This document shows positions 6,754 through 56,900 of a stretch of 64,000 nt of DNA, piece after piece. This DNA comes from Pegea sp. RAD2-039 (Eukaryota; Chordata; Thaliacea; Salpida; Salpidae). The notes under the pieces are model-generated. The model did not search any database, had not been told where the DNA came from, and saw only the letters and a program-made list of their open reading frames with translations. The first letter of the stretch is position 1, and each line of letters starts with the position of its first letter. The stretch is from NCBI GenBank assembly GCA_034620365.1, contig JAQGEQ010000071.1, positions 3,720,001-3,784,000 on the forward strand, read 5' to 3'. Both the position numbers and the translations under genes were made by a program.

Positions 6754-6974
6754 TTGATGACGTCATTAGACAGTCAATTTGCTTAGATTTAGATTTAATG
6801 TGATGATGTCACTTCGATTTGTAAATGACGTCACGATCGCCATAGTTTCGACCAGCGATCGTGAATATGACGTCATTGTTTTTTGTTGCAGATAATTTTT
6901 GATAAAAATTTAGAAATTTTTTTTTGATTTTTGAAAATTTGAAACGAAGAAATTTTGGAGAGCGGAAATTGAAG
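6754..6974 (+). promoter_or_regulatory. Putative DACH 5' flank with a CRE/ATF palindrome cluster
   Basis: Perfect TGACGTCA sites lie at 6758-6765, 6826-6833 and 6868-6875, with a near copy (TGATGTCA) at about 6804. This is three perfect 8-mers in under 120 bp, directly upstream of the proposed first coding exon. TGACGTCA is the consensus full site for CREB/ATF-type bZIP factors. Whether any of these is a promoter element is inference; the same motif fills the whole gene. Confidence 0.45.
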
Positions 6975-9900
6975 ATGTCTCACGCGGTTATGATACATGG
7001 TAAATGGGAAAATGTCAACATGACGTCATCAGTACCAACTGCTTACAAAGTAAAGACTTTTCTTATTGCAAAGATCTTTTCATCTTTTTTTTTGTCTTTT
7101 TTTCGTCTTTTTTACGGCTAATTGACACGACAAAGCAACCCTCCGTCGCTCGCCCCTTCGAGTCGCTTCATTTCACTTGAAATCCTTGAATTCCCCCAAA
7201 AAATGCTCCCGAAAAAATCAGTCAAAAATTCTCGACAATATTTTGGCTTTTTTTGTTAATGGCCCGGAAATAAGCGTTTCTCAAATGAAAGCGATGACGT
7301 CATCACCGAATATTTTAAATCCTTCTCCGATTTAGTTCGATCTAAAAAAGATCATCAAAGTGATGACGTCATCATCTGTGCAATAAAATGGCGACTTGAT
7401 CATCAACTTCTATTCGAGATTCGATTTACTGCCTGTAATCTGAGCGTTTGTTCTTCGATCACATCGCAGCGTTACTTGGCAACAAAACTGCTCCTTCTTT
7501 TTCTGCTTGTCAATTATTTTCGGCATTGTCTAAAAATCGCCAAAAAATTTGCGACAAAAATTTTCTTTTTGGCAAAAATCGCTCGAAGCAAACAGCGTTC
7601 GACTCTGGGTTAGTTTGGCAAGGGTCTTGATGGTTAATTGTTGATGGCAGCGAGCAGTTAGCGACCAATAATTGGTTAGCAACTAGTTTAATTTGTTGCT
7701 AGCTCAAATCAGTTATTGGAAAGCAATTTCTATGGCAACAAATTGAGTCGTAAAAATTTCCAGCATTTTAATTGGTTGATGAAAACGAGTTTTCTTGCAA
7801 CTTTTCAAGATATTTGCATATCAGTAGACGGGGTTGTTTGTTCGAGACAAATAACAGGGTTTGGTGGTTGCCTAGCAACGTTGATGACTTCATCGTCAGC
7901 TGCGGGTCTCTTTTATTTGCTTATTTGAAGTCTATCAACTTTTTTATCTCTGACCAATTCCTCATTGACAGTGGACTAGACAAATTTGAGGTTTTTCTGA
8001 AATGGCCTACATATATTATTGCTTCAAAATGGCGCTGAAACTTTGAACATTTAAACCAAGGTCGATTTTAACATGTTGCTGATTTTAATCAAAACAAAAA
8101 AAATACTTGATTTTGTTAAGTCTTCTATGATCGCTTAAACAAGTTCTCGAACAAGTGATGACGTCACGATTAAATATCAAGTACAAGATTCAACCGGAAG
8201 ATGTGATCTTGTGAAAGTTCGTGACTTGATTTGTGGATCAGTTGATAACGGAAACACTGAATCGTCTATTGTTCGAAACTTCGACGAGACATGACTCATA
8301 TTCGATCGACAAATCGCGGTTTTCATCGCAAACGCCATAACTTAATTGTCATCAATTTAATGCTGAGCACATGTTGGAGGTGATTGGTTTCTGCATGCTC
8401 TGACTCTCCTTGTTTAGAGTAATACATTTGAAATAACTTTATTGGAGAAATGCAATCCACAAAAAACGTTTGTACGATTTTACAAAGTCATTATGTTGAT
8501 TATCTATTAGATCGGCATCTTATACTGTTGTTAGGATAAACATTTGTAGCTAAGTTTGCGGTTGAAATCTGATTTAAAGTAGTTTAACAGGAAGATACTT
8601 TTCGGGAGTGTTTTGTGTTCAGAATTTTTATAAATCACTTCATCTTCAAATATTGTATCAAATGAAGAACTTTAAATATCTGATCTTTATTTCATTTTAT
8701 ACCTAATGTAATGTTTATCGAAGAAAAGGGTTTGGTTAATGTCAAACCAGGTTCATAAAGTTACCTTCAATTTTCTAAAGATTTAGTCGCCTTCAAAGTA
8801 GTGTTGAATTTTATGAATAATTACACCTTCTTCTAATCTAATTTTCTTTTTTTTAGATGGACAGACCAGCATATAGCACTCCACCTCCAGTAGAAAATAC
8901 ACCGGCTAATAATGAATGTCATCTGGTGGAGTTACGTGGAGCAAAAGTAGCGAGCTTCCAGATAGGAACTGAACAATACATTTGTCTACCTCAAGTAATA
9001 ACTTACTACTCAATAATCTTTTTAGCTTTGTTCTTGAAAATCTTAAATCTTTAAATCGATGCAGTTCATCGATGCTTGTCTAGTTCAGCTTAAAACTTTC
9101 TTCTCATATTTAAATCAACTTTTCAATTTTCCACAAACATTTTTTGACTGATTTTTTTTTTCGCTTTTAATCATTTTCAAAAGCGATAAAAATTTGCGAA
9201 AATGGAGATAAAGAACAGAAGCTGCTGCTAATAATATAGAAAAGTCACCGCAGAGGCTTGTTTGTAAGCACAACAAATTACAAGCGACAAGATTATTTTA
9301 AGAAATGCATTTTACCTTTTTCTCTAATTATTTCTTTCTGATCTTCCAACTGAAGACTTTTGCCAAAAGCTCGTTTTAGTTCATAATCTGATTATTTGAG
9401 GGTGTCGTCTTTGGACTGTAGATTGCCATAAAAAGGACAAATCCTCAAATTGGTGGTCCAAAGACCTGAACCTTTCGAGCGTTGATGACGTCATAGTTTA
9501 TCTTTCAGGCATTTGATCTGTTCCTGAAACATTTAGTTGGAGGTCTTCATACGGTTTATACTAAATTGAAGCGTCTCAGTATTCAACCAGTTGTTTGTAA
9601 CGTCGAGCAAGTGAGTGGGGTCGCGTGTGACGTCATCAGAGGTGACGTCATCATCGTTTAATTGTAGGTCCGTATTTTACGTGGACGAGGAGCTATTCAA
9701 CCTGGAGTTAACCGATGTAAACTAATCACAAAAAAAGATTTTGAAATTCTTTATCAAGACTGCACAACTGCAAGGTGAGATTGTGACGTCATTGACTTCT
9801 GCTCACCTGTGTTCGAAACGCGCGCGTCAAGGGGGCGATTTTTTCTGCCAATTAGTTACTCGAAGCAAAAAGCTTTTTTGAGAAGAAAAAAAAACTTTGA

Positions 9901-12900
9901 AGTTGGTGATGACGTCATGGTTGGGTGATTCTGTCGTCGCCATAATTACAATCAAGTTGATCTCTCGTTGTCATGACGACGTGCTCCGTTAATCTGTCAC
10001 GCTTCATGATTTCCGATCCATCTTCATTCAGTTAGGCGCACGACTCGATGACGTCATCACCCGAAGTTGAATTCCATTTGGCGGGGATGTGATGACGTCA
10101 TCATTGACCAAAAGTGATTGCCGCATCTATCTGCGAGTGCTGACGTCATCATTTCGACTTCCTGTCTTGAATGTAACGTAATTCAGTTCTTATCAGCTTT
10201 TGACGATGTTATAGACTGCGCGAAACGTGACAAAGACCTGTAATCAGTAAATGGCGCGATGCTGATGACGTCATAAGGCGCAATGCATCAATAAGAAGGA
10301 TTAGAAGAAATGAAGAAGTTTGTGTTTGAAGTGACTCGTATGAACATGAAAAAAACTCTGTTTGTTAAATACGCCATCTAACGGCGAGCTCATAAAACGA
10401 TCGCTTAAAGTCGTCGCTTATGCAAATGAGGCGAGAAGTGAAAGAAGGGGTCAAACGAAGAAATTGTTCCATCTATTGGCGTTACTGGTTGATGACGTCA
10501 TTAGTTGTAACGTTTTAGGTTGTTGATTGCTAAGTAATTTCGATGGTTGTTTTGTAGCTAGTTATTAATTGATCTCTGTGGTTGCGAGGTGACGTCAGTC
10601 GTTTCTAAGTAATCTAAGTGGTTGCTTGGTGAGCTGAGTGGTTGCTAGGTTACGTCAGTTGTTTGATAATTTTTAATTTGGAGCTTTAGAAATTGTTTTG
10701 ATCAAAAATTAAAAATTTTGAATTTGAAAAAATAATTTTTTTTGGATTTTATTTTTTCCTTTTTTTTCCTTTGGGGTTAATTTTTCGTTTTTCTATGAAA
10801 CTGATCTCTTAAAAGTTTATTTTTATTACTGTTCAGAGCCAAAATTAAATTATTATGATAGTGAAACATTTAACATTCATCAATAATTCATTCTTTTTTC
10901 AATCTCTATAACATCATTTGCTGCTCAAATTGAAAAAAATGTCTTTTTTGCTTTTTGCCTGCCAGCTGAATGAAGAGATAATTTGTAAGTTGAGCAAGAC
11001 ATCAGCGTTCATTTTCATCTCTCTTCCAGTATTAGTGCCAAAAATTAGGTTTGAGAAGTTTTTTAGAAGATAATTAAAGCGATGAGGTTTTAAAAGCACC
11101 TGTTTAGCTGCTAATTACAAAATAACCTGATGAAGATTAGATGGTAGGGTTTAAGTGTAAATTTATGTTGGATCAAAAATAAGAATTTAACATCACAATA
11201 TTTCCAAATGATTTTTATAAATCCATGAAAATTATGACGCTATCAAACTAACGAGACATTTTTCGGAAAGCGACTTGGAAACCCTGGAAATCGCGTTTTA
11301 TGTAAATTTGCCGTTATCGCTTCTATTATGACATCACTTCTTATCAAGCAAACGGAGATAAGTTTTTTGACGTCATCATTGATTTCAAGGTTGAAATCGG
11401 TTCTTAGTGCAATGACGTCATACTTGCAGCTGGACAAAAGACGAAGCAATTGTGACGTCATGACTTCGATCGCAACAAAGAGGGCAACGAAAATCGAAAA
11501 ATCGATTCTCGTTTATTTGAGAATCGGCAAAAGTTTAAAAATAGAAAATTACGAAAAGATTTTCTTTAAATGAAGATGTTGTAGATAGGAACTGTATTTC
11601 CGTTTTCACGAATTATTCACTTCCGAAAAAGAATCTTTTTTTGGTTGAAAAATAAAATTGTAAAATTTTTATCAAAAAATAAATAAAATTTTACAATTTG
11701 TTAAAATACTTTCAATTATTTAATTTAAAAGTCAAAATATTTCTAGAAACATTAACAAGATTCAAATGAAGTTTTTCCTGAATTTTAAAACTATTTGCTT
11801 CCCTTAAAACAGTTGATCTAATTGAAGATGTCAACCTCTAAATTTTCTCTTTTTTGTCGCCAGTTTTTTTGTCATTTTTTTGACTTTTTTTCGACTACAT
11901 TTTGGCTTCTTTAAACTCTTCTTTTTTTCAATCTTCATATTTGTCTCAACTTTCAAGTTTGCTTCATTTTCTTCACCAATTTATAGATTTTACTTCTCGC
12001 TATTCTGACGTCATCAAACTTTTAATCGCTTGTTTGTTCACAGCCGACCAGGGAGACCCCCTAAACGTTATCCGATGTTACCACCATCAGAACTAGCATC
12101 ACACCATTCAAACATGACCTCACGACCAGGAAACGTAAGTACGAGGACCACTAGGTCACTTTTGTTGTTATTTCCGTTCTAATATTTGTCTAAATTGGAT
12201 ATTCTGTGAAAATTCCGTTCAAATCCGACCTTGACTTAATTTTCAGCCTCTTCTGCATCAAGCTGATCTTTTCCAACAACATAAAAGGATGCGTCTGGAA
12301 AACGATCCCCACAAAGATCGCAGAAGTGAGCAAAGTTTGAAATTTGAGATTCAAAGTAACTGTTGCTGTTCCACTTCGCTGATTTTTATCTCTTCCTAAT
12401 CTTGTACCCTCCCCTTTTTGGGGCGCCATCTTTTCTCCTGTAAAGAGCCGAAGATACATTCTTTTGCTGAACTTTTTTCATCTTCAAATACTTTTTCGCG
12501 CTTTCTATAAGCCCCTTTAACTCCCTTTACGCCCTTCCCTTGCTCGATGTCATAGATCACTGATTTTCATGGTGATGATCACGTCATAGTGGTTCATTAC
12601 TGTCGATGACGTCATCATTAATCAAAAACTTTTATAGCGAGTCCCTGCAAAGAAGAGATTAAGGAACTTCAGGGAGGAAATCATTCGAATGAACTTCCAT
12701 CAAATCAAGCAGCTCAAATTGCTTATTTTCAGGTACCCTGGTCCCGACCCTGACCCCGAGCCCTCGTTTAATCGTCTTTCTTTAAGGCGCTACGTCAATA
12801 CCAACAAGCAGCAAACATCCACAACAGTTTGGAAGTTCCAGCAGCTGCTTCTGCAGTTCAGCAACAAATTAATCCGTTTATGATGATGTCACATCAGCTT

Positions 12901-15900
12901 TTAAACCCTCAACAGCAAATGGCGATGTTCAATCATATTAACCAGGTAACCACGACAACCAGCCAGCCAGTCACGTGCTTATCTAGTCGTTCAGATCGCC
13001 CAATCACAACTTGCCAATGGAACATTTGCAGCAGCGGCGCAATTAGCAGCCAATGGTCAACACAATCATCTATCAACACAATCAATTCTACGAGTAGGTG
13101 ACGTCATCAGCGCGTTTATGACGTCATTTGTTTATTGTTTGTTGTCAGCATCACGAAGCAGCGAAACGGAACTCATCGCCTGGCAATGATAAAGAGTCTG
13201 ATGACGAAACTCCTACAAGTCCCAGGTGATGACGTCATATCCGTTTCTACCATTTTTTGAACCATTTTATTAAAACGACATTTTCGTTTTTTAAATAGTC
13301 GGGAATTTTCCGCCAATCCTGTGAACAATGGTCACGAAACTTCTGTCGACTATGACGTCACTGATCGGCGGTCTCGAACAAGTAGCTACGAATCCAGTAA
13401 TGACGTAACAAACCAGCTACCGCATATAATGACATCACAGCGAAAATCGTCGTTTGGTCCTGAAACTATTCACGAAGCGCCAATTGGCGTTACCAATAGC
13501 AACGGTGAGTTGATGATGTCATAAATTTCCTCATTTAATCACGTCATAAACACCACTACGGTGAAATATAGTGACGTCATCATTAACGCGATAAATCCAA
13601 GTATTTTAGTATGCGGCTATTTTGTTAAATTTAATGACATCATCACCGCGTTGATGACATCATTATTATGCAGATGACATGAAAAGTAATTTGGATAATT
13701 TGATCGAGTTACAATCACAAAATTGTAAAGAACAAGCTTCAACAGAGAAGTTGTTAAATAATATTCAAGATCTTCTGAAGGTTGCTGCTTCTAGTGCAAG
13801 TAATCAAGAAAAAAAAAACTTGAAAATAATTTGTAAGTTGATGACGTAATTACTGATGACGTAGTTGGTGTGTAGCGATCTGGTCGATAATTCTTTTGAG
13901 ACACTATAGTAAAACTTGGAACTTTTCGATGATGATGCAGTTCATCTTCATTGTGTTGATCCTTTGAATAATTAATTTTAGAATTTGAAAAAATTTGTAA
14001 AAGTAAATAAAAAGTAAATCTGAATAAAATTTGGCAAATTTTGACTTAAGTTACGTCATCAAATATTTTACAGCGGAATTAAAAATGATGATTGAAAAAG
14101 AAAGACTCCTTCGCGAACAATGCGAAAGAAAACTGATCGAAAGTGAAAAAAGCCGAGGTAAAGTCACAAGAGAATGACGTAGTTGATGACGTAGTTGATG
14201 ATTTAATTGATGACATAGTTGATGATGTAGTTGATGATGTAGTTGATGATGTAATTGATGACGTAGTTGATAATGTAGTTGATGATGTAGTTGATGAAGT
14301 AGTTGATGATGTATAATGTAGTTGATGATGTAGTTGATGACGTAGTTGATGATGTAGTTGATGATGTAGTTGATGACGTTGTTGATGATGTTGGTTGATG
14401 ACGTAGCTGATGACGTAGCTGATGATAGTGATGATGTAGTTGATGATGTAGTTGATGATGTGGTTGATGATGTAGTCGATGACGTAGTTGATGATGTAGT
14501 TGATGATGTAGTTGATGATGTAGTTGATGATGTAGTTGATGATGTAGTTGATGATGTAGTTGATGATGTAGTTGATGATGTAGTTGATGATGTAGTTGAT
14601 GATGTAGTTGATGATGTAGTTCATGGTGTAGTTGATGATGTAGTTGCTGATGTAGTTGATGATGTAGTTGATGATGTAGTTGATGATGTAGTTGATGATG
14701 TAGTTGATGATGTAGTTCATGGTGTAGTTGATGATGTAGTTGATGATGTAGTTGCTGATGTAGTTGATGATGTAGTTGATGACTTAGTTGATGATGCAGT
14801 TGATGGTGTAGTTGATAATGCAGTTGATGAAGTAGTTGATGATTTAGTTGATGATGTAGTTGATGACGTAGATAATGTAGTTGATGACGTAGTTGATGAT
14901 GTAGTTGATGATGTAGTTGATGATGTAGTCGATGATGTAGTTCATGGTGTAGTTGATGATGTAGTTGATGACGTAGTTGATGATGTAGTTGATGACGTAG
15001 TTGATGATGTAGTTGATGATGTAGTTGATGACGTAATTGATAATGTAGTTCATGGTGTAGTTCATGATGTAGTTCATGACGTAGTTGATGAAGTAGTTGA
15101 TGATGTAGTTGATGATGTAGTTGATGATGTAGTTGATGAAGTAGTTGATGATGTAGTTGATGATGTAGTTGATGATGTAGTTGATGATGTAGTTGATGAC
15201 TTAGTTGATGATGTAGTTGATGATGTAGTTGATAATGTAGTTGATGATGTAGTTGATGATGTGGTTGATGATGTAGTCGATGGTGTAGTTGATGACGTAG
15301 TTGATGATGCAATTGATGGTGTAGTTGATGACGTAGTTGATGATGTAGTTGATGATGCAGTTGATGATGTAGTTGATGATGTAGTTGATAATGTAGTTGA
15401 TGATGTAGTTGATGATGTAGTTGATGATGTAGTTGATGATGTAGTTGATGATGTAGTTGATGATGTAGTCGATGATGTAGTTGATGATGTAGTTGATGAT
15501 GTAGTTGATGATGTAGTTGATGATGTAGTTGATGATGTAGTTGATGATGTAGTTGATGAAGTAGTTGATGATGTAGTTGATGATGTAGTTGATGATGTAT
15601 GATGTAGTTGATGATGTAGTTGATGATGTAGTTGATGACTTAGTTGATGATGTAGTTGATGATGTAGTTGATAATGTAGTTGATGATGTAGTTGATGATG
15701 TAGTTGATGACGTGGTTGATGACGTAGTTGATGATGCAGTTGATGGTGTAGTTGATGATGCAGTTGATGAAGTAGTTGATGATGTAGTTGATGATGTAGT
15801 TGATGACGTAGTTGATGATGTAGTTGATGATGCAGTTGATGATGTAGTTGATGATGCAGTTGATGATGTAGTTGATGAAGTAGTTGATGACGTAGTTGAT

Positions 15901-16863
15901 GACGTAGTTGATGATGCAGTTGATGATGCAGTTGATGATGCAGTTGATGATGTAGTTGATGATGTTTTTCAAAAACTTCGATATACTTTGCAATTGTGTC
16001 TGAATCATTATTTGTAAATTTTGAAGAAAATAAAATTAAATAATCCAATTTTTTGTCTTTGATCTCAATTTTCTGATCTTCTCTTTTACTAACTATACCA
16101 CTTTCTTTGATACAACTCAACAAAACTGATGTTGTAATTGTTATTTCCTTATGATGTTATCAATCAACAGAGGAAGTAAATCGACAATGGAATAAACAGA
16201 AACAAGAAAATCGTCTCTTAACCACAAAAGTTCTTTCAATTACACAACTGCTCAATTTTGCTGAGATGAAGATAAATGCAAAATCAGCTTCAAAAGGTAT
16301 TGATGACGTCATCATCGCTTTCTTGTAACTTTTCTTGTTCAGACTCAAAATTTGTATCGGAAGCAACGACGGAAGCGATGACGACATCACCGCGTGCTAG
16401 TCCTCAGTCAATACCAGCTTCATCGCCAGAAGCAACCGAAACGACAGGAAGTCCGCCGACGATGACATCATCAAGTGGTAACAAATTGACTACTAGCAGT
16501 GATGACGTCATTTACACACGTGATGAAACGCCACTTGTTTCTACGATGATGTCATCACCTAGCAACACAGCTGGAAATATCAGTGCAATGCTAGCTGCTC
16601 AGCTAGTTGCTTCACGTGCACAAAGTAAGCATTAATGATGACGTCAGCACCACTTTTATAGTTTTGTCATAGGTACGGAAATGACGTCACCAAGTCCACC
16701 AATTGCCGCCAGTTGCCCAGATAATGGTTCTTCTCCAAAAATCAATTTTAATACTAATAACAATAGCCACGAGGTTGCTACGACAACTAACGCCCCTAGT
16801 AACTCTGATGAAGCTTCAATCGCCTTTCAAAATCGACCAATGACAAACCCTAGCTACTGGTGA
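6975..16863 (+). CDS. DACH1: Dachshund family transcriptional co-regulator (DACH), complete, 16 coding exons
   Basis: Exons: 6975-7049, 8857-8994, 9509-9610, 9668-9774, 12044-12134, 12247-12325, 12638-12732, 12787-12945, 12995-13093, 13149-13225, 13299-13504, 13674-13832, 14074-14157, 16171-16296, 16343-16624, 16673-16863. They join in frame to 689 residues. Residues about 35-141 form the Ski/Sno/Dac DACHbox-N (AYSTPPPVENTP, LRGAKVASF, ICLPQAFDLFLKHLVGGLH, GAIQPGVNRCKLIT), followed by RPGRPPKR. A variable Q/A/S-rich middle contains PFMMM. Residues about 425-530 are the DACHbox-C coiled coil (LLNNIQDLLKVA, ELKMMIEKERLLREQCERK). Family role: nuclear DNA-binding corepressor working with Eya/Six in eye, limb and muscle programs. 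Exon 1 is inferred: MSHAVMIHGK then a gtaaag donor, joining phase 0 to exon 2, whose ATG sits directly after an acceptor AG. The conserved PVENTP block is in exon 2, so translation could instead start there. The Ser/Thr-rich C-terminal tail looks lineage-specific. Confidence 0.93.
9775..12043 (+). promoter_or_regulatory. DACH intron 4, dense in TGACGTCA palindromes
   Basis: This 2.3-kb intron holds at least 11 perfect TGACGTCA sites, for example at 9784, 9910, 10049, 10093, 10141, 10266, 10493, 10590, 11368, 11413 and 11453. Many are extended to GATGACGTCATCA. The intron lies between the DACHbox-N exons and the rest of the gene, a common place for developmental enhancers. Enhancer function is inference, because the motif is equally dense in short introns. 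Confidence 0.4.
14172..15967 (+). repeat. Minisatellite of about 150 copies of a 12-bp unit (GTTGATGATGTA) in DACH intron 13
   Basis: Tandem units of GTTGATGATGTA fill almost all of intron 13 (14158-16170). Variants include GATGACGTA, GATGATGCA, GATGAAGTA, GATGACTTA and TTCATGGTG. Phase slips occur near 14305, 14872 and 15595. Longer blocks are themselves duplicated: the TTCATGGTG-bearing block recurs 96 bp apart (14620 and 14716), and a block marked by GATGACTTAG recurs about 439 bp apart (about 15199 and 15638). The unit length is a multiple of three and lacks stops in several frames, so long pseudo-ORFs appear on both strands. Reading on from exon 13 in its own frame meets TGA within seven codons, so the array is intronic, not coding. 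Confidence 0.97.
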
Positions 16864-17660
16864 ACGTGATGATATTACTATTTGCTCACAAATTTTTTTA
16901 TTTTCTTTCTTTTTCGTTTCTGTCGGTCTTGCTGCTAAACAAAGTCGCCATGACAACGCTAATAGCGTCATAATCATCAATGGTTTAAGTCTACACCCGT
17001 GACGTCATCATAACTACTAACTGATGGCATCATCTTATTTTGATGTAGTTAATGTGAATTATGTATTGACAACCAAAAAAACTCAGAAATTTACTGTGTT
17101 CTGTTTGGGGATTTCCCCAGAGCTGAAAGCTGCGTTAAATGGAGTTTAGGCCATAAAGCGTCGACGCCATTTTCGGCGGTTAACAAATGTTTGTAAAAAA
17201 TCGTTTTTTAGCTGCTAAACAGGGAATAGTCCCTGGTTTAAAAGCTGCTGTTGTTTCTGCTGCTGTTTTGTTGTTGTTGCTTTTTGTGTTGTTGGTATTT
17301 TAGTGATATTCCAGTTGTTAGCAGTTCTTGTGTCGAAAGCTGCTCATGCGTCATTAAAGACGTTTGTCTCTCGCGCCATTTGTCAATCTACCTCTGTACA
17401 AAATGCTCGAGTACAAAAATGACCAGTTTTATTTTTGGTTTAGGTTCCAACTTGTACATATTTTAAACTATCACCATTACTATTACGTCACCATCATTTA
17501 CGTCATTATCATCTACGTCATCATCATCCGCTTCTAACATTCAATTCAATCTAAGAACTTCTTTTCTGTGAAAGAAAATATTTCGATTAAGCCGATCAGT
17601 TAAACGACCATTTTCGTATAACTCAAATTTGAAAAGTGTTTCAATAAAATATTTTGGTTC
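16864..17660 (+). other. DACH 3' UTR and likely poly(A) signal
   Basis: No further open frame follows the DACH stop at 16861-16863. An AATAAA signal lies at 17643-17648 in an otherwise non-coding stretch that contains another TGACGTCA near 16999 and a pyrimidine/GTT-rich tract around 17250-17290. The end of the transcript is inferred from the first good AATAAA. Confidence 0.5.
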
Positions 17661-25439: not shown

Positions 25440-26200
25440 ACCTTCCTGGCTGTTTCTTGGGAGAGTTTCCTTTTCTTCTTCTTTCCCCTTCTTTCGGCAT
25501 TTGAAACACGTACTTGAACCAGCTAGGCATCTTTTAAAACCATGAGGTTTGATACCTCCACATTTCAAACAAACTCTTTTCATGGCCGCTACTTTCGGTT
25601 TAGCTTGGTTCTCTTCTTTGAGTTCAATTGAATTTACTGCTTCTTCTGCAGCTTCAACCGAGCTACCAACCCAAAGTATTGATTGTTCTGTCGGGCATCT
25701 TCAAGTGTTATCAGTTGGTTAAAGGCTTCCTCCAATGTTGAAGTTTCGCGCTCTAACAACCACTACCTTATCTGGGTTAAAATAATTCATCTATAAATGA
25801 ATCCCTGATCATATCATCACTGTGTTCTGCTGTCATGAGATTCCTTACTAGATATATCAAAGTACATCGAAAGTCTTCTATAGTCTGGCTTGGCTTCTGC
25901 TTCTCCGTTCGTAGCAGATGACGCGCGAAAATTTCTTGCGGTTTCTTTACATATAATCGTTCCAAAGCCACTTCAGCTTCTACATAAGTCTGACATCTCT
26001 CAAAGTACTGGTACACCTTTTCGGTGGTGCTGTTAACCAGCGCTGCTAATTTCATCTCATCAGTCCAATTCAACCCACACTGGTTTGGGTAATTGGCAAA
26101 AGTTTTATTCCAGTAACGCCATTTGCTGGATGTCGACGGACTTTTTGGGTCAATAGACAGTTTGCTTGGTTTTAACAGTTCATTCTTTTTTTTATTAAAA
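25440..26200 (-). pseudogene. Retrotransposon gag, frameshifted
   Basis: Minus-strand frame from about 26200 contains WRYWNKTFANY, YVKKPQEIFARHLL, a TIEDF motif and MIRDSFIDEL, which is the capsid pattern of Ty3-like invertebrate and fish gag proteins. After a break at about 25770 it resumes with TLEEAF and LEDARQNNQ. A zinc-knuckle-like stretch follows near 25590-25470: CLKCGGIKPHGFKRC, then CFKCRKKGK, in place of the usual second knuckle. Gag would form the particle shell and bind element RNA. At least two frame breaks and stops show it is dead. Confidence 0.75.
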
Positions 26201-26388
26201 AAACTAACATATACTTATTCAAATCTATACTAGCTATAGCAAGAAGAAGCTATCTTAACTGTTTCTAAGATTTAACTGCACTAAGCTCCAATAACGCTAA
26301 AACAACTGGCAACAATTTGCCTAAGAAATGAATTATACAAATTGAATAAATTCTCATGATAATAACTCCTTAAGATTATTCTTTAAGT

Positions 26389-46775: not shown

Positions 46776-48347
46776 TCAAAAAAATGGGTTTGTTGTAGAT
46801 GGCTGTATGGTTGGTGCAAGAGACGGGTTCATAAACGGGTTGGTGGCCGGTGAATGGTTGGCACCACCAGAGCTTTGTAGTGGGACTAGATTTGTTTGTG
46901 ACGTCATGAACGGATTATTAGTGGAAGCTGGTGCTGTAGAACCTTGAAGTTGAAAGAAGGGATTTGAAGCTGGTGCAGCATTTGTGAAAGTATTTGTAGG
47001 TTGTTGAATACCAAAAGACTGATTTGGTACCATTCCAGTGTTCTGATTGAGTTGAGTTTGGATTCCAAAACCACTTGACATGGTTTGTAGTTGAGGTTGG
47101 TTCTGCATACCAAAAGCAGTGTTTGAGTGTTGCTGCATATTTAAACTGAACTGTGGATTCATTTGAGGATTTGATTGAAAAGGAGTCGAGTTTGATGATG
47201 GCATGTAAGCAAAGTTGCCAGCAAATTGCTGGTTGTTTGGTGCATACATGGACGGATTATTTGTGTATCCAGCAACATTTTGTGGTTGCTTTTGATTAGA
47301 ATTGCCTTCAGCTGAAACTCCAGTGCTGATTGGTTTATTTGAATATGATGAGTTGTTATCAAATGATGAATTACCAAACACAGAAGGCGTAGACGAAAAA
47401 ATTGATTGATTGGTAGATGGTTTGGTGTTGGAAACTGACGTCATAAACATCGAACCCCAAAGACCATTAGATGGTTGAGTGGTGTTGCTGCTGGTTGTTA
47501 CTTCTTCCATAGTAAAGAGATCTCGCAGGTCTGCGTATTTGTTTTTTGGTTCCGCTGGTGCTGGTGGTGCAGTGGTGGTTGTAGTAGCAGCTGGTAAAGA
47601 AACAAAGGAATTTTGGAATATGGTAGAAGCAGTAGCAGCAGCAGCTGCAGGTTGTAGCTGAGTTGAAGGGTCTGTTGGTGTGATTGAGTTAAAATCTCCA
47701 AATGAATCGAAAGGCGACGGAGTTGGTTTGAATTGAGAAAATGCGCTGCTAAAATCCGCAAATTCATTATTGGTTGAAGATGATTCAGTATTAAGATCAA
47801 AACTACTGAAACCTCCTAAAATATCTTCAACCACTGGTTGCTTGGTTGTTTGTGGTGCTTCAACAATTCTAGTAACTGGTGGTCTTGAGTTGGTTACAGA
47901 GGAAGTAACCACCTTATCAACTTCAACTTTTGACGCGGTGTTCTTCTCAACTTCTTCTGGAGGGACATACCATCTTTTTTTCTCATATTTTTCCTCTAAA
48001 AATGATCTCAGCTTGGAAATATCACCTCTACTTTCTGGTTTTGCTTTTGATCTTTCGTCATATTTTCCTAAATAAACTTTGGTGCAATATTCATTTCCTG
48101 TTTTTTGAATCAATGCTATTTCAGCTGAAGTAAAAGTTGCCATTGAGATGGACTTGACGCGATGCGGAGGATTAATTCCTCGTAATATTCCTCCGCACGA
48201 CGTACATACAAATGATCCAATAGTTACATCAACATATGTGGGGCCTCTCTGGTCACATTCAAAACATCTTTTATTTGTTTCAAGTTGTTGTAAAGATTTT
48301 AAAATCTTCAGATTATGATCTTCTTGTTTTCGACGTGATTGAGACAT
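46776..48347 (-). CDS. AGFG1: ArfGAP with FG repeats (AGFG/Hrb type), single exon
   Basis: An uninterrupted frame of 523 residues from MSQSRRKQEDHN (ATG at 48347). An in-frame ATG ten codons upstream (48377) is possible but less conserved. The N-terminal ArfGAP domain has the zinc finger C28-x2-C31-x16-C48-x2-C51, and Arg56 in CGGILRGINPP is the arginine finger. NPPHRVKSISMATFT and EKYEKKRWYVPPE are AGFG signatures. The long C-terminal half is disordered, rich in N/Q/S/T/P, with FG dipeptides (GFGIQ, AFGMQ, SFGIQ) and four NPF motifs in the last 75 residues, including the terminal NPFF. NPF motifs bind EH-domain proteins such as EPS15. Known role: cytoplasmic adaptor in clathrin-dependent endocytosis and recycling of VAMP7; AGFG1 was first found as a nucleoporin-like Rev cofactor. 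The absence of introns is unusual next to genes with dozens of them. AGFG1 or AGFG2 cannot be decided. Confidence 0.95.
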   Translation of the reverse strand: MSQSRRKQEDHNLKILKSLQQLETNKRCFECDQRGPTYVDVTIGSFVCTSCGGILRGINPPHRVKSISMATFTSAEIALIQKTGNEYCTKVYLGKYDERSKAKPESRGDISKLRSFLEEKYEKKRWYVPPEEVEKNTASKVEVDKVVTSSVTNSRPPVTRIVEAPQTTKQPVVEDILGGFSSFDLNTESSSTNNEFADFSSAFSQFKPTPSPFDSFGDFNSITPTDPSTQLQPAAAAATASTIFQNSFVSLPAATTTTTAPPAPAEPKNKYADLRDLFTMEEVTTSSNTTQPSNGLWGSMFMTSVSNTKPSTNQSIFSSTPSVFGNSSFDNNSSYSNKPISTGVSAEGNSNQKQPQNVAGYTNNPSMYAPNNQQFAGNFAYMPSSNSTPFQSNPQMNPQFSLNMQQHSNTAFGMQNQPQLQTMSSGFGIQTQLNQNTGMVPNQSFGIQQPTNTFTNAAPASNPFFQLQGSTAPASTNNPFMTSQTNLVPLQSSGGANHSPATNPFMNPSLAPTIQPSTTNPFF

Positions 48348-48377
48348 TGAATAAATCTTATTAAAATCTGAGAGCAA

Positions 48378-51300
48378 TTCAACAGAATGAAATTTAAAGT
48401 ATTTTCAAATAATACTAAAAAAATCTATTTTAGGAATATTGTAGACAATGAAATAAAAATTAGGAAGTATTTTTTAGATAAAAATGAAAAATATAAATGT
48501 TAAAAAATAAAGAAAATTTTTTACAGGATTGTTGTAAGACTATCATAAAATAAAACATATTGTTTTTTTTAAACAGTTTCTAAAAAATGTCATTTAATTA
48601 CTAAAATAAATTAAAATAAATATTTAACTGAAAAAAATGTCTTAAAATAATTGAAACATTTTAAAAATACCTTTAGTCTATTACATTTAAAATTCATCAC
48701 TTTAAATTAAACAAATATCAAAATTAAAATAAATATTTAATTATCAAACCACAAATCATAATTAAAAAAGTCGTTTTTAAAAATAAAATTGCTTTCATAA
48801 ATCAATAGTTAATAAATTAGATGAAAAGTATAAATATGTTATCCTATTTTAGCCTTACTTCTATATTATAATGCTAAACATACCATAATAAAACAAATCT
48901 TTATACAACTCAATTTATATTAAAAGCTTTAATTAAAAAGCAACACTATTTATACTGACAAATATATAAAAAAAGAAAATTATGAAGTTTAGATTTCTAT
49001 ATAGAATTATGATAATAAAGATTACATAAAAAAATTTGTTAGCAAAAAATGATCTAATGTAATTTTATGCAGACTTTGATCACATAAACTGATCATCAAA
49101 AATCTTATAAAATCATGCTAATATTATGAACAAAATTTAGGTTAAGCTAGATATAAATAAAATTATAAAAAAATATAAAAATAAAGTAGTTAATAAGGAA
49201 AATTTAACATTATAAATTTCGAAAATCAATCTTATAATTAAGTTATATATTTAAATATAATAATACTATTATATGGTTTAAATGGACAATTTCAAAAGTA
49301 TATAACACTTTTATTATCTAATAAGAAATAAAAGTAAATATATATAAATGTATAAACATAAAACCTGTCAAAAAACATGAAATACATAAATAATTAATGA
49401 TTTGAGTCTTTAATATGAGAGCAGAAGTTATCAGAATAATTATCATTACTTAAAAATTGCCAAATAAGGAAATAAATCTCTTGGTAAATGTTTGGTGCAA
49501 GATATTTTATATTAAAATTCAAAAATATTGAAAGAATAAGTGAAAAGCTTTTTATACAAAAAAATCAATATTTCAAATTATAATATTCATAATAAACATA
49601 CTTTGCAACATAATTTAAAATATAAGTAAGAAAAGTTACATAATTAGTCTCTCAACATAAACTAAAAATAATTTGAAATCATATTTCATTTTGATGTACT
49701 TTATTAAGCCATGTTTAAAAAAAAATTGTTAATTTTAATTAAACTTAAATTTAATAAGTTGAATAGAGAAAATAAATACATAAAAAATATCATTTAATTT
49801 ATAACAGTTTTAGTAAAAAACATCAATCCCAAAAGTTTTAAATAAATTATTTAAATAACACAATACTAGAATTATTTTATAACAACTGAGTACATCAAGA
49901 AGAATTACAAAAACATAAAAAACTTCAAAAAAAACAAACGCAAAAGCCACCCGCCCATGATAAGACTGAAAATTTCATTTACAGTTATCAAAAATTTATT
50001 TGGTCACTTGGTGTCGCTAAACTAAAAAAGGGACAATTCTAAAGATATCAATTACCATTTACTCCTTAAGATTAAGTATATAAATAATAATAGATCATTA
50101 ATGAATGTCGTACGTACATAGAGAAAAAACACCGTGTTTTTTCCATCTCTCTTTTCTATCCCTCATTCTTATTGTATCGTTTCGCATGTATATTTATTTT
50201 TCTTTCATGATTTCATCTATGCACACTCTTCTGACTTTAAAGCACTGCCAAAAAAGACTCTTTTTCATGATGCGCGTTTATCTATAACGTAATTTTGCAT
50301 ACTGTTCATTAAAGTTTTTCTGTAATTACATAAATCACAAAATGTAGAAATGATTACAAAATATTGATTTTAACCGTTTCTCTGAAACAGAAATTGAAAA
50401 TATTATAATTTCCTTACCACATGCAACTCTATGTGTATTTCTTATTTTATTTGATTTCTTTGTAGTAGTTTCTTCAGCAGGTGTCTTTTTTAATTGTGCG
50501 CGATTCCACGATGAAAATTGCCTACGTGAGAACATTTCAGTTTATTATAAAAATAAAATTATTCTTATTTTTTATTTTTAATGATCATTGAATGTAATCG
50601 ATAAAACAGCAAAATTTTCTGAATTTTAACGTCTACTAATGTATTATAAACAATATGATTTTAAACAAAGTAAATTAAAAAAGTCTTCCGAAAAAAGAAG
50701 ACAAAACAGCTCTAATACACCAAAGTTATAAACAGCTCTCGTAGTCTGAGGAGCTTGAACGAAATATAAATAGTTTTTTTTTTAAACTGTTTGATTAAAA
50801 AACTGACTATTAGCTGTAAAATGGATACACTTTTACAGGATTTTGTAGTAAAGCTTATAAATTTATAAGCTTATAAATTAAAAATACTTTTAAATTCAGC
50901 TGCTAATAGTATTAAGGTGTTTGTTTTTTTTAAACATATACTTGTTTTAGTGAAAAATACTTTTACTAATATTTTACGTTAAGTCGTTAACTCAGCATTC
51001 ATTTGCTTCTTTGTGCCTATCCAGCTGTCAACTTTGATTAGATTGCCTTTTACTAGCAAAGATACTCCGAATCTTGTGCAGGATTCAATCTTTTTTTAGT
51101 GAGTTGTTTGGATTAATAGAGGCATGCTTCGGCCGAGAACAGACATGCAGGATGTGCTTTGAGTGATGATATTAAAAACAAAGCAAACACAGTGAGATGC
51201 AAAAAAATTTTTTGGAGTTTTTTTTTGAAGCTGGTTTTTCTTCTCTATCTTTCATTTGTTTGCGGAGTAGAGAGCGCCATTGGAAGCGATCTGCTGCGAT

Positions 51301-53914: not shown

Positions 53915-56900
53915 CTACTGTCCCTCACTAGATTGCGAATCATTCTTAGTAGGGGTCTTCTTACGACTCAAAGTAAAGCCCTGCATGAGATGAGTGAGTA
54001 ACTGACGTTTATCAACTTGTATCGACTACCTGTTGACATTCTAGAGGACCACGTGGATGCCGGATGACGCTGACTTGAGGCCGCGCAACCGCATCAGTTG
54101 AATTCCGCATGCGAAGTCGTTCAGGACGCTGATGCTTAGGTGGATGATCAGCGATGCGGACATTAGAAGCGGAAAACTTGCCTGAAAGTAGAAAGATGAG
54201 CGGACAGACATAAGTAGAGGGGCAACTGACCATTTCGTTGATTGTAAATCACCGCAAACTCGACTGCGCTGCCTGCAGCGATCTGTTGGGAAGATTCACG
54301 AACCTCAGACATGTGGAAGAAAAGCTTCCCGTTGCTAGGCTCGCCACCGGACACGTCGTAGTTGATGAATCCATACTAGAAGCATCGAAATATGAAAAAG
54401 TGCCCCTGTTGGCATCTTCACTCACTTCACCCTTAATACTGTCGATTGTAGCGCGGACTATCTCGCGATTGGCGCGAACAGCGACTGCTCTTTGTGCTCC
54501 ACTATTCGTCTCAGTGCTAACCTACAATCGAAGCGAGATGATCAGCTGGTTGCAGATGTCGAGGTGTATTTACCTGAAAGGTCACTTTGTCGCCAACTTG
54601 AATGTAATCGCGACGGTCCATCAGACTCAGAGGGCTATAAGCGATAGTTTTGATGCCAGTTTCTCCTGAAAGTGATTATGTAAATATCTAAGGATCAAGT
54701 AGAAGATTGGGAAAACCTGAAGGAATGTTTTCTTTGTATTCGATGAGTCCTTGATAAGTAAGCAGCGGGTTCACTGATCTCAAAGGTTTGAGGACTTTAC
54801 CTGAACACAATCATCTTATCATTGGAAGATGAAAGATGCAGGGACATACCCTTAATGATCTTCTCACTAATAACTTGATTTATTCCGAATACAGATTCAG
54901 ATGAGATTCGGACAGACATGGCGCAGGGTTTTTCATCTAAACAGGAATATCAAATAATCGATTCCAACAACACGAGACACTTACCTCGGATACCAGTATG
55001 ATAAGACACGGGAAGTCCCGGATGATACAAGTCTAATGGAGATTGTAGCTCACTATAGTGGAAGAAGATTTCGGAATTGTGTTCGAAGTCCTCGATGAAA
55101 CCAAATGTATCTTTTAATGTGCTTATCCAACCGTAAAAGCAAGTTGAAGAGAAACGCCTTTGCTGTTCGAACAACATCAATTTGATGGTTGTTAAAACTT
55201 CGATCGCGATACAAACCTCCTTGTGAACATCAACCGATTTGTTGGAAGGACTGACGACATGTTCTTCAGCAGCGGTATCGGGTGTGGTTGTATCTTTGCT
55301 TATTGATGTCTGTTGGTGTTTGGGCGAGTCTGAAGGACTTTTCTGCGTTTCTCTGTTATCAAAGAACAAAGAGATTAGTGAAGACCTCATTAAAAATATA
55401 TTAAAATCAAATCAGCAGTGAAAGTTGGGAAGTTGCCGCCGCCGCACAATCAATCAGTTAATAGCGGCTTTCAATTTAATCAACTTCTAAGGAGCTAACA
55501 AAGAGTTGGTTGAAATGACGAAATGTTATGAAGCGTGAAAAAGGTGTTTGTCAGAAACGCGACTACGTCACTCGCTTCGTGTCAGTCGAAGCATTGTGAT
55601 CGGAAATGAAGTTTCGTTTATCTACAGATTAATCTTTCCTGGCAAAATCGCGAAATGATTTGAAGGTGACGTGGTCTCTTCTACAAAACCTCAAATTCTA
55701 ATCGGGTTAATTGCAAACATGAAAACAGCCGAACGGTTTCGACCAATCAGATAAGCGTATTTTCACTTACTCATTCTTCTCATGAAAAGCCGAACCAGAT
55801 TGAAGGAAGACTGAATCATCCATATTAATCTTTGAAATGGTGACAGAGAGATCTTCTGCTAGAGATCACAAGCATTACACGATTACTCGTAGATGATGAT
55901 CGAACCTTCGATAAGAGGAGAGAGCTTCTCGCCGTTGTTGGTGACGCTCATCGACTGATTGAGCGAGCGACGTCGCGACAACAGCTGGATATCAACAGCG
56001 TTCTTCGAACCAGTTCTCTTCACTTCGCTTATTTTGAAATCGACCTGAAGATGAAACTGATCGTTGGAGAAGTACTTGCAGAAGTCGAGACTCACCGCGT
56101 CGCCTACACTTGGTGGATATGCTAATTGAGGGTAGTCCTTGAAGTCTTTGGTTAGGAAAGGAAGCCGAACTACATCGGAGCCCAAATCCATGCTCACGGC
56201 ATCTGAGTCATTTTTATTCCGCGAAAATACAATAAATCCCGAAGTGGTGGCGGAGATAGGACTAAGCGGAATTTCGACAGGATTATAACTGGAAGGAAAT
56301 ATTTGATGTAAATACGATTGAAGTGAAGACGTCATGAAAAATTGATCGGAAATGTTGATAGAGATGAAGAAGAAGAACATGTTGAAGTCGACCAACGTCA
56401 ATTTGGTTGGTAAAACATCAGGCAAATGTTGAAAAATTGGTGAAAAAACGGTTTAGTCGCCTCATGAAATATGCATCAAGTGAATTGAGTAGCTTCTTCT
56501 TCTTCAGGTAAAAAGGAGTTGACAGACAGATGAGATAGCAAGTTTTAGAAGCTAGTTGAAACTTTTTCAAATATCAGATCACTTCAGTGGTGAGATGACA
56601 ATTGTGAGTTTACTATTGACACAGCAAACAAAAGCAACAAAGACCAACCTTCTCGAAGTAGCTGTTCGGTTGGGGGCTGGTAAAGACTCGATTGTGCCGG
56701 TGAAGCGTTGTTCAGACACTGTATGAAAGATGACGGTATTCTTGGGTAATAGTTTAATTCTCGTAGCATGCATCCTGTGAAGATGAGATGAAATAGAAAG
56801 AAGATCACTTGAAGAGGTTCACCTTTGTTTCTCAGCTACGGGGTCAGGAAGAACAGTGAATTCGACTTCATCAGACATACGGACGTGATGATGAGGATCA

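What the first reader, a model, noticed from the sequence alone, without database searches (positions are those of the whole stretch)
6758..17010. TGACGTCA (CRE/ATF palindrome) saturates the Dachshund locus
About 33 perfect TGACGTCA sites occur between 6758 and about 17006, often extended to GATGACGTCATCA. From base composition (about 37% GC) I estimate roughly 0.1 expected per 10 kb. They occur in the 5' flank, in introns of every size and in exons. The other 54 kb hold only about eight. Possible explanations are an exceptional bZIP-responsive array over a developmental gene, a spreading micro-repeat, or an isochore-like sequence habit of this genome that shows up where GC is higher.
Basis: partly seen in the sequence, partly recalled or inferred. 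Interest (0 to 1): 0.8.

Follow-up and report, generated by a model that had tools for sequence, protein, structure and literature searches.

The report
Genome-wide CREB-site word crowding certain genes
One eight-letter DNA word, the classic docking site of the CREB protein family, is packed into the gene dachshund and into some other genes of this small animal genome far more often than chance allows, so it is a genome-wide habit and not a special feature of dachshund.

Summary
TGACGTCA occurs 40 times in the window, 33 of them at 6758-17007 (chance about 0.2), across a complete 15-exon Dachshund (DACH) gene. It is not specific to DACH. The 105.7-Mb genome has 27,792 copies; three palindromes of the same base composition have 694, 969 and 2,917. 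Copies are patchy: of 18 blindly placed samples 13 held none, 2 held one and 3 held 11-62. GC does not explain this: 25 GC-matched 1-kb bins of the window hold 5 sites, 8 DACH bins hold 30. In dense sequence the exact word is about 180-fold enriched, single-mismatch forms about 3-fold (mainly CpG-decay forms), so the exact word is kept or young. Most flanks are unrelated. The flanks read R-TGACGTCA-Y, and pairs favour 20-bp spacing. The genome has a clear CREB orthologue. Best reading: gene-scale clusters of CREB/ATF-type sites in introns, 5' flanks and low-constraint exon positions of a subset of genes, kept by selection for bZIP binding. A self-favouring word without organismal use, like the cyanobacterial palindrome HIP1, is a serious rival. 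Occupancy, species and conservation could not be tested.

The parts
6758..17007 (.). Cluster of 33 exact TGACGTCA palindromes (mean gap 320 bp)
8857..16863 (+). Dachshund (DACH) coding region, 15 exons, 664 aa, all 14 introns GT-AG, one open frame
   Evidence: model by eye from splice signals and frame; Ski_Sno_DHD domain; 1l8r
6758..8166 (.). Seven sites in the 5' flank / probable 5' UTR region: 6758, 6826, 6868, 7021, 7295, 7364, 8159
9486..9493 (.). Site in the 514-bp intron 8995-9508
9628..9650 (.). Two sites (9628, 9643) in the 57-bp intron 9611-9667
9784..12013 (.). Twelve sites in the 2,269-bp intron: 9784, 9910, 10049, 10093, 10141, 10266, 10493, 10590, 11368, 11413, 11453, 12006
12607..12614 (.). 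Site in the 312-bp intron, inside a 209-bp piece that is 95% identical to contig C58:20100-20308
13099..13126 (.). Two sites 20 bp apart in the 55-bp intron 13094-13148; 31 bp identical to an intron-like stretch of a polybromo-like gene on C249
13230..13237 (.). Site in the 73-bp intron 13226-13298
13353..13360 (.). Exonic site coding Y-D-V-T
13572..13579 (.). Site in the 169-bp intron 13505-13673
14174..15965 (+). 12-bp tandem array, about 151 copies (unit ATGATGTAGTTG), in the 2,013-bp intron; no exact TGACGTCA in it but near-CRE units (GATGACGTAG)
16304..16311 (.). Site in the 46-bp intron 16297-16342
16503..16510 (.). Exonic site coding S-D-D-V-I
16639..16646 (.). Site in the 48-bp intron 16625-16672
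16682..16689 (.). Exonic site coding E-M-T-S-P
17000..17007 (.). Site 3' of the stop codon, probably 3' UTR

Best explanation
The DACH cluster is one of many gene-scale clusters of CREB/ATF-family bZIP binding sites (RTGACGTCAY, full extended form TGATGACGTCATCA) in this animal genome. Sites arise mostly in place, by point mutation, in introns, 5' flanks and weakly constrained exon positions of a subset of genes. They are retained by selection because a bZIP dimer (CREB, or another ATF/Jun/Fos-type protein) binds them; pairs about two helical turns apart are favoured, as expected if neighbouring dimers cooperate. The likely outcome is a bZIP-coated, active or inducible gene body. Shown: the word, its excess, patchiness, placement over the DACH gene body, flank preference, spacing preference, weak enrichment of single-mismatch forms, and presence of CREB and other bZIP genes. 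Inferred: origin by point mutation, binding, selection and any effect on expression.
For: 33 sites where 0.18 are expected. Genome: 27,792, against 969 for ACTGCAGT, 694 for AGTCGACT (same composition and central CpG) and 2,917 for TCAGCTGA; GATGACGTCATC 3,824 against 4 reversed; 5,280 pairs within 38 bp against 0 for the reversed control. Patchy: of 18 blindly placed samples 13 held 0, 2 held 1 and 3 held 11, 16, 62. Dense loci carry ankyrin and PARP domains (L016), a 5-phosphatase and SH3 domain (L015), bromodomains and BAH (L026). Flanks in five gene regions: -1 is A or G in 115 of 124 and +1 is T or C in 118 of 124, near-symmetric to transcription, so DNA-level recognition. Spacing of 20 bp: 10 of the first 56 listed pairs, all on C1 (p 1e-5 for one spacing, 3e-4 after 31 spacings); 37 distinct loci against 12 at 25 bp on contigs C1-C4 and C6. 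In 53.2 kb of dense sequence 151 exact words (0.82 expected) but only 60 single-mismatch words (19.4 expected), 27 of these the CpG transition TGATGTCA/TGACATCA. Flanks mostly unrelated. CREB orthologue (the 3 PDB hits are all CREB, best E 1.3e-19) and Jun-, Fos-, CREB3- and XBP1-like bZIPs read by eye.
Against: No binding, chromatin or expression data exist here. Dozens of sites per gene, exons included, exceed what gene control is known to need. The 20-bp preference could partly reflect ~50-bp introns or copying: two more spacing-20 pairs share 11 of 12 spacer bases with the DACH/C249 pair. Spacings of 28-57 bp could not be read as a set. Some single-mismatch forms besides CpG decay are raised too (TTACGTCA 11 against 1.9, CGACGTCA 5 against 0.75, TGGCGTCA 3 against 0.6). 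Sparse sequence also has a milder excess (9 against 0.95 in 161 kb). No relative was available, so conservation is untested. A word-level drive gives nearly the same picture. The dense set was largely chosen for density.
Confidence: 0.5

Rival explanations
1. A self-favouring word without organismal benefit: a biased conversion, repair or mutation process that recognises the 8-bp palindrome creates and keeps exact copies, as proposed for HIP1 in cyanobacteria and for DNA uptake sequences.
For: Exact words far exceed single-mismatch words; mostly unrelated flanks; sites in exons in two reading frames (MTS and DDV); 263 per Mb and 10- to 40-fold over the three control palindromes here, close to the lower end of HIP1 at 300-2,700 per Mb and O/E 55-228 (PMC4390886 section 2.2). 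The genome carries several DNMT1-type ORFs without introns, loosely parallel to the methyltransferases tied to HIP1.
Against: Strong patchiness on the gene scale is not what a genome-wide mutational process predicts. The R/Y flank rule and 20-bp spacing fit protein binding. DNMT1-type enzymes are not known to read an 8-bp site (recalled).
Confidence: 0.25
2. A spreading micro-repeat or introner-like element: short DNA carrying the word is copied into introns.
For: Short tandem arrays with the word in successive units (L015, C8, C14); a 31-bp match between a 55-bp DACH intron and a polybromo-like gene, with two more loci sharing 11 of 12 spacer bases; a 209-bp DACH intron piece at C58, 95% identical. 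Flank matches exceed the null at 9 of 12 (52 against 26) and 10 of 12 (12 against 3) too.
Against: Of 13 flank pairs matching at 11 or 12 of 12 among 318 arms (null 0.1), 7 are duplicates within one locus, 4 belong to the two known copies (C58, C249) and only 2 are others. Conservation falls to background about 4 bp outside the core, and copying does not explain exon sites.
Confidence: 0.12
3. A composition or isochore habit: the word appears wherever GC and CpG are high.
For: Dense loci have higher GC and CpG o/e (0.96 with motifs masked) than sparse ones (0.71).
Against: GC-matched bins of the window: 5 sites in 25 against 30 in 8 for DACH; 14 outside bins with GC of at least 0.36 hold 2. 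AGTCGACT, same composition and CpG, is 40 times rarer. L014 is dense at 26% GC.
Confidence: 0.03
4. Meiotic recombination marks of the fission yeast M26 type (ATGACGT bound by Atf1-Pcr1): dense sites define recombination domains.
For: The extended core holds the M26 heptamer (recalled) on both strands, and the ATF/CREB protein Atf1 promotes recombination at CRE-like M26 sites in yeast (listing and abstract starts).
Against: Hotspot motifs are expected to be lost by conversion, not to accumulate (recalled); no recombination data here.
Confidence: 0.1

Closest known systems
CRE (cAMP response element) and homotypic CREB/ATF site clusters in animals
   Same: Identical 8-bp palindrome, R/Y flank preference (that preference is recalled), CREB orthologue present in the genome
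   Different: Known CREs sit mainly in promoters in small numbers (recalled); here tens of sites run through a whole gene, exons included, and 27,792 sites fill a 106-Mb genome
Highly iterated palindromes (HIP1, GCGATCGC) of cyanobacteria
   Same: 8-bp palindrome, hundreds per Mb, tens-fold excess; here in coding and non-coding DNA
   Different: Animal genome; strongly patchy by gene; flank and spacing rules of a bZIP site; no cognate 8-bp methyltransferase shown
DNA uptake sequences of Neisseria and Pasteurellaceae
   Same: Exact short word in great excess, near-misses comparatively rare (the near-miss property of uptake sequences is recalled)
   Different: Those depend on transformation, which animals lack; not palindromic (recalled)
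M26 recombination hotspot motif of Schizosaccharomyces pombe
   Same: ATGACGT core (recalled) bound by ATF/CREB proteins
   Different: Studied as single-site hotspots in yeast (recalled); no recombination evidence here
C. elegans pairing-centre and dosage-compensation motifs (recalled)
   Same: Short motif dispersed in clusters over gene regions
   Different: Those are chromosome-restricted and non-palindromic; here dense places were seen on at least five contigs (C1, C50, C100, C200, C249)

Membership tests
CREB/ATF (CRE) binding-site cluster | Consensus TGACGTCA in statistical excess | tested here: met
   33 observed, 0.18 expected
CREB/ATF (CRE) binding-site cluster | Flank preference R on the left, Y on the right | tested here: met
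   115 of 124 and 118 of 124; that this is the bZIP preference is recalled
CREB/ATF (CRE) binding-site cluster | A CREB/ATF-type protein encoded in the genome | tested here: met
   L031, best match CREB1
CREB/ATF (CRE) binding-site cluster | Occupancy in cells and effect on transcription | not testable with these tools
   no ChIP, ATAC or expression data
CREB/ATF (CRE) binding-site cluster | Conservation of the sites in relatives | not testable with these tools
   the tool states that the genome has no relatives there
Highly iterated palindrome (HIP) | 8-bp palindrome at hundreds per Mb, tens-fold excess | tested here: met
   27,792 in 105.7 Mb = 263 per Mb, just under the 300-2,700 given for HIP1; 40-fold over AGTCGACT, 29-fold over ACTGCAGT, 9.5-fold over TCAGCTGA
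Highly iterated palindrome (HIP) | High frequency throughout the genome | tested here: not met
   13 of 18 blind samples held none
Highly iterated palindrome (HIP) | Methyltransferase specific for an inner part of the word | tested here: inconclusive
   DNMT1-type ORFs found; their specificity is unknown
Mobile micro-repeat or introner | Copies share sequence beyond the word | tested here: not met
   as a general rule; exceptions
M26-type recombination hotspot | Raised meiotic recombination at the sites | not testable with these tools
   no genetic map

The most novel reading that the evidence does not exclude
Probability: 0.22. Interest if true: 0.85.

Novelty: new variant of a known kind. 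Interest (0 to 1): 0.6.

Why it matters
If the sites are bound, this genome offers many natural CREB arrays inside gene bodies and a way to learn what whole-gene bZIP coating does. If they are not needed, it is a rare animal example of a short word driven to high copy number by something other than copying of DNA segments. Either way it warns that motif enrichment in this genome cannot be read as gene-specific regulation without a genome-wide baseline.

Tried and rejected
DACH-specific array: rejected. GC or isochore effect: rejected. One search had counted 8 sites in 27 'other' bins, but 3 of those 8 were the cluster's own sites at 6758-6868; one search drops straddling bins (5 in 25). Repeat spread: tested by flank comparison and mostly rejected. 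RNA-level word: flank counts are nearly symmetric to transcription, with a mild excess of G at -2 (78 of 124) over C at +2 (55 of 124), so not favoured. Second word GTTGCTA (RFX/X-box-like, a recalled label): enriched in dense loci (36 against 4.6; sparse 28 against 16.9), but 12 of the 36 listed lie in one tandem-looking stretch of L016 (by eye), and distance to the nearest CRE is as random (median 247 against 212 bp), so no CREB-RFX pairing is claimed. Species: not identified. The COX1 search found nothing and the 18S search did not complete. Literature: searches with TGACGTCA or ATGACGTCAT plus overrepresentation, intron, sponge or CREB terms, CREB with Trichoplax, and highly iterated palindrome with eukaryot (only the listings and abstract starts seen) showed no report of such a genome-wide word; the library holds open-licence papers only. 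HIP paper PMC4390886: abstract and sections 2.2 and 2.6 seen. Uptake-sequence and M26 papers: listings with abstract starts only.
Full report
What is there. The window lies at C1:3720001-3784000 of an unnamed 105.7-Mb genome in 387 contigs. It holds 40 exact TGACGTCA, 33 of them at 6758-17007; shuffles give 0.6 for the whole window and a local Markov null gives 0.18 for the cluster with its tandem array removed. The cluster covers a complete dachshund gene: 15 coding exons, 664 aa, 14 GT-AG introns, one open frame (by eye). The Dachshund domain is called by Pfam (E 1.4e-38) and matches a solved Dachshund domain (1l8r, E 1.5e-50). Of the 33 sites, 7 lie 5' of the first coding exon, 22 in 9 of 14 introns, 3 in exons and 1 past the stop. 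Exons also hold 7 single-mismatch versions, most of them in the C-terminal half of the protein. The intron array at 14174-15965 is a 12-bp minisatellite of about 151 units that contains no exact TGACGTCA.

Genome-wide baseline. TGACGTCA occurs 27,792 times. Three palindromes of the same base composition occur 969 (ACTGCAGT), 694 (AGTCGACT, with central CpG) and 2,917 times (TCAGCTGA), so the excess is 9.5- to 40-fold, 40-fold against the CpG-bearing control. GATGACGTCATC occurs 3,824 times against 4 reversed. The mean is 263 per Mb; the DACH cluster is about 3,200 per Mb. I placed 18 samples at round coordinates without looking (eleven of 10 kb, seven of 4 kb): 13 held none, 2 held one, and three held 11, 16 and 62 (part of the 62 are short tandem arrays). 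L016 was chosen because one search showed hits there, L001-L004 came from those hits, and L026 came in through a match to DACH. Dense loci carry ankyrin and PARP domains (L016, tankyrase-like), a 5-phosphatase domain and an SH3 domain (L015, synaptojanin-like), and bromodomains and BAH (L026, polybromo-like) (the gene names are my reading). L013 and L014 were not named. So the word is genome-wide and patchy on the gene scale, and DACH is one dense gene among others.

Not GC. Eight 1-kb bins inside the cluster (mean GC 0.364) hold 30 sites; 25 bins outside with at least the same minimum GC (mean 0.372) hold 5; 14 outside bins with GC of 0.36 or more hold 2; bins that straddle the edges or the array were dropped (4 of 64). 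CpG o/e with the motif masked is 0.96 in dense and 0.71 in sparse sequence, so dense genes are less CpG-depleted, but this cannot by itself make one word.

Anatomy of the word. Outside the core, conservation is TGA on the left and TCA on the right and falls to near background about 4 bp out (162 sites including tandem copies, both orientations pooled). In five gene regions (124 sites, identical contexts counted once) -1 is A or G in 115 and +1 is T or C in 118, nearly symmetric to transcription. In 53.2 kb of dense sequence there are 151 exact words (0.82 expected, about 180-fold) and 60 single-mismatch words (19.4 expected, about 3-fold); 27 of these are the CpG transition, 11 are TTACGTCA and 5 are CGACGTCA; most other changes are near expectation. 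The sparse set (161 kb) still has 9 exact words against 0.95. A neutral, ageing population of sites should show about as many one-step derivatives as exact copies (my inference), so the exact word is either actively kept or very young. Mostly unrelated flanks and sites in two coding frames argue that it is kept in place rather than inserted.

Spacing. 5,280 pairs lie within 38 bp genome-wide, with none for the reversed control. Of the first 56 listed pairs, all on C1, 10 are spaced 20 bp and 5 are spaced 30 bp. The 20-bp spacing occurs 466 times and the 25-bp spacing 251 times, many of the latter from one array on C14; on contigs where both capped lists are complete (C1-C4, C6) there are 37 distinct loci against 12. 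This is what cooperating dimers on one face of DNA would give, but small introns and a few copied pairs also contribute: the 20-bp pair in a 55-bp DACH intron shares 31 bp with a polybromo-like gene and 11 of 12 spacer bases with two loci on C3.

Copying. Among 318 flank arms, 13 pairs match at 11 or 12 of 12 positions (null 0.1): 7 are within one locus, 4 belong to the two pieces shared with C58 and C249, 2 are others. Weaker matches are also above the null (12 against 3 at 10 of 12; 52 against 26 at 9 of 12), partly because some arms run into a second site. Copying therefore adds sites but does not explain most of them.

Reader proteins. Twelve bZIP matches exist. I read five: a CREB orthologue (its 3 PDB hits are all CREB) and, by eye, Jun-, Fos-, CREB3- and XBP1-like basic regions. 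No expansion of the family is seen.

Explanation. The evidence fits gene-scale bZIP site clusters kept by selection (0.5). It does not exclude a word kept by a biased molecular process (0.25): density and excess approach the HIP1 class (HIP1 300-2,700 per Mb, O/E 55-228; PMC4390886), but patchiness, flank rule and spacing are not HIP-like. Copying explains a minority of sites (0.12 as the main cause). A link to recombination through the M26-like core is open (0.1).

Limits. No relative, no species name, no expression or binding data; the dense set was largely selected for density; exon models were made by eye; place lists of the genome tool are capped at about the first 100 rows; the search for spacings of 28-57 bp and the 18S search did not complete.

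Noticed in passing
window 14174-15965 and L015 about 7850-8950: The same 12-bp minisatellite unit (TAGTTGATGATG) forms long arrays in an intron of DACH and in a probable intron of an unrelated synaptojanin-like gene, in the same orientation relative to the gene in both.
   Followed up: partly
L027, L028, L029, L030 (C57, C57, C249, C32); further matches on C32, C52, C262, C49: Several DNMT1-type ORFs without introns (822-856 aa in the four read); L027 has methylase and BAH domains by Pfam (only copy tested), and L030 lacks the PCQ motif (motif recalled). They look like retrocopies or a small expanded family.
   Followed up: partly
L015 3420-3880: A 42-bp repeat lies in an open frame of a proline-rich stretch (repeat PPPLLPSRNDDVTM), most units carrying the word in apparently coding DNA.
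   Followed up: partly
window 12430-12638 and L025 1501-1709: A 209-bp piece of a DACH intron is 95% identical to a place on contig C58, without the neighbouring exons.
   Followed up: partly
window 7867-7879, 10640-10659; L015 about 5300, 6550, 9030: X-box/RFX-like words such as GTTGCTAAGCAAC and GTTGCCTAGCAAC recur in dense loci (label recalled).
   Followed up: partly
window 25777-26214: ORF on the minus strand that reads like a retroelement gag protein (by eye, not tested).
   Followed up: no
window 46776-48404 and 54953-55411: An ArfGAP-domain gene (AGFG-like; sites at 46899 and 47436) and a cold-shock-domain gene (CSDE1-like; none) near DACH, with far fewer TGACGTCA.
   Followed up: yes
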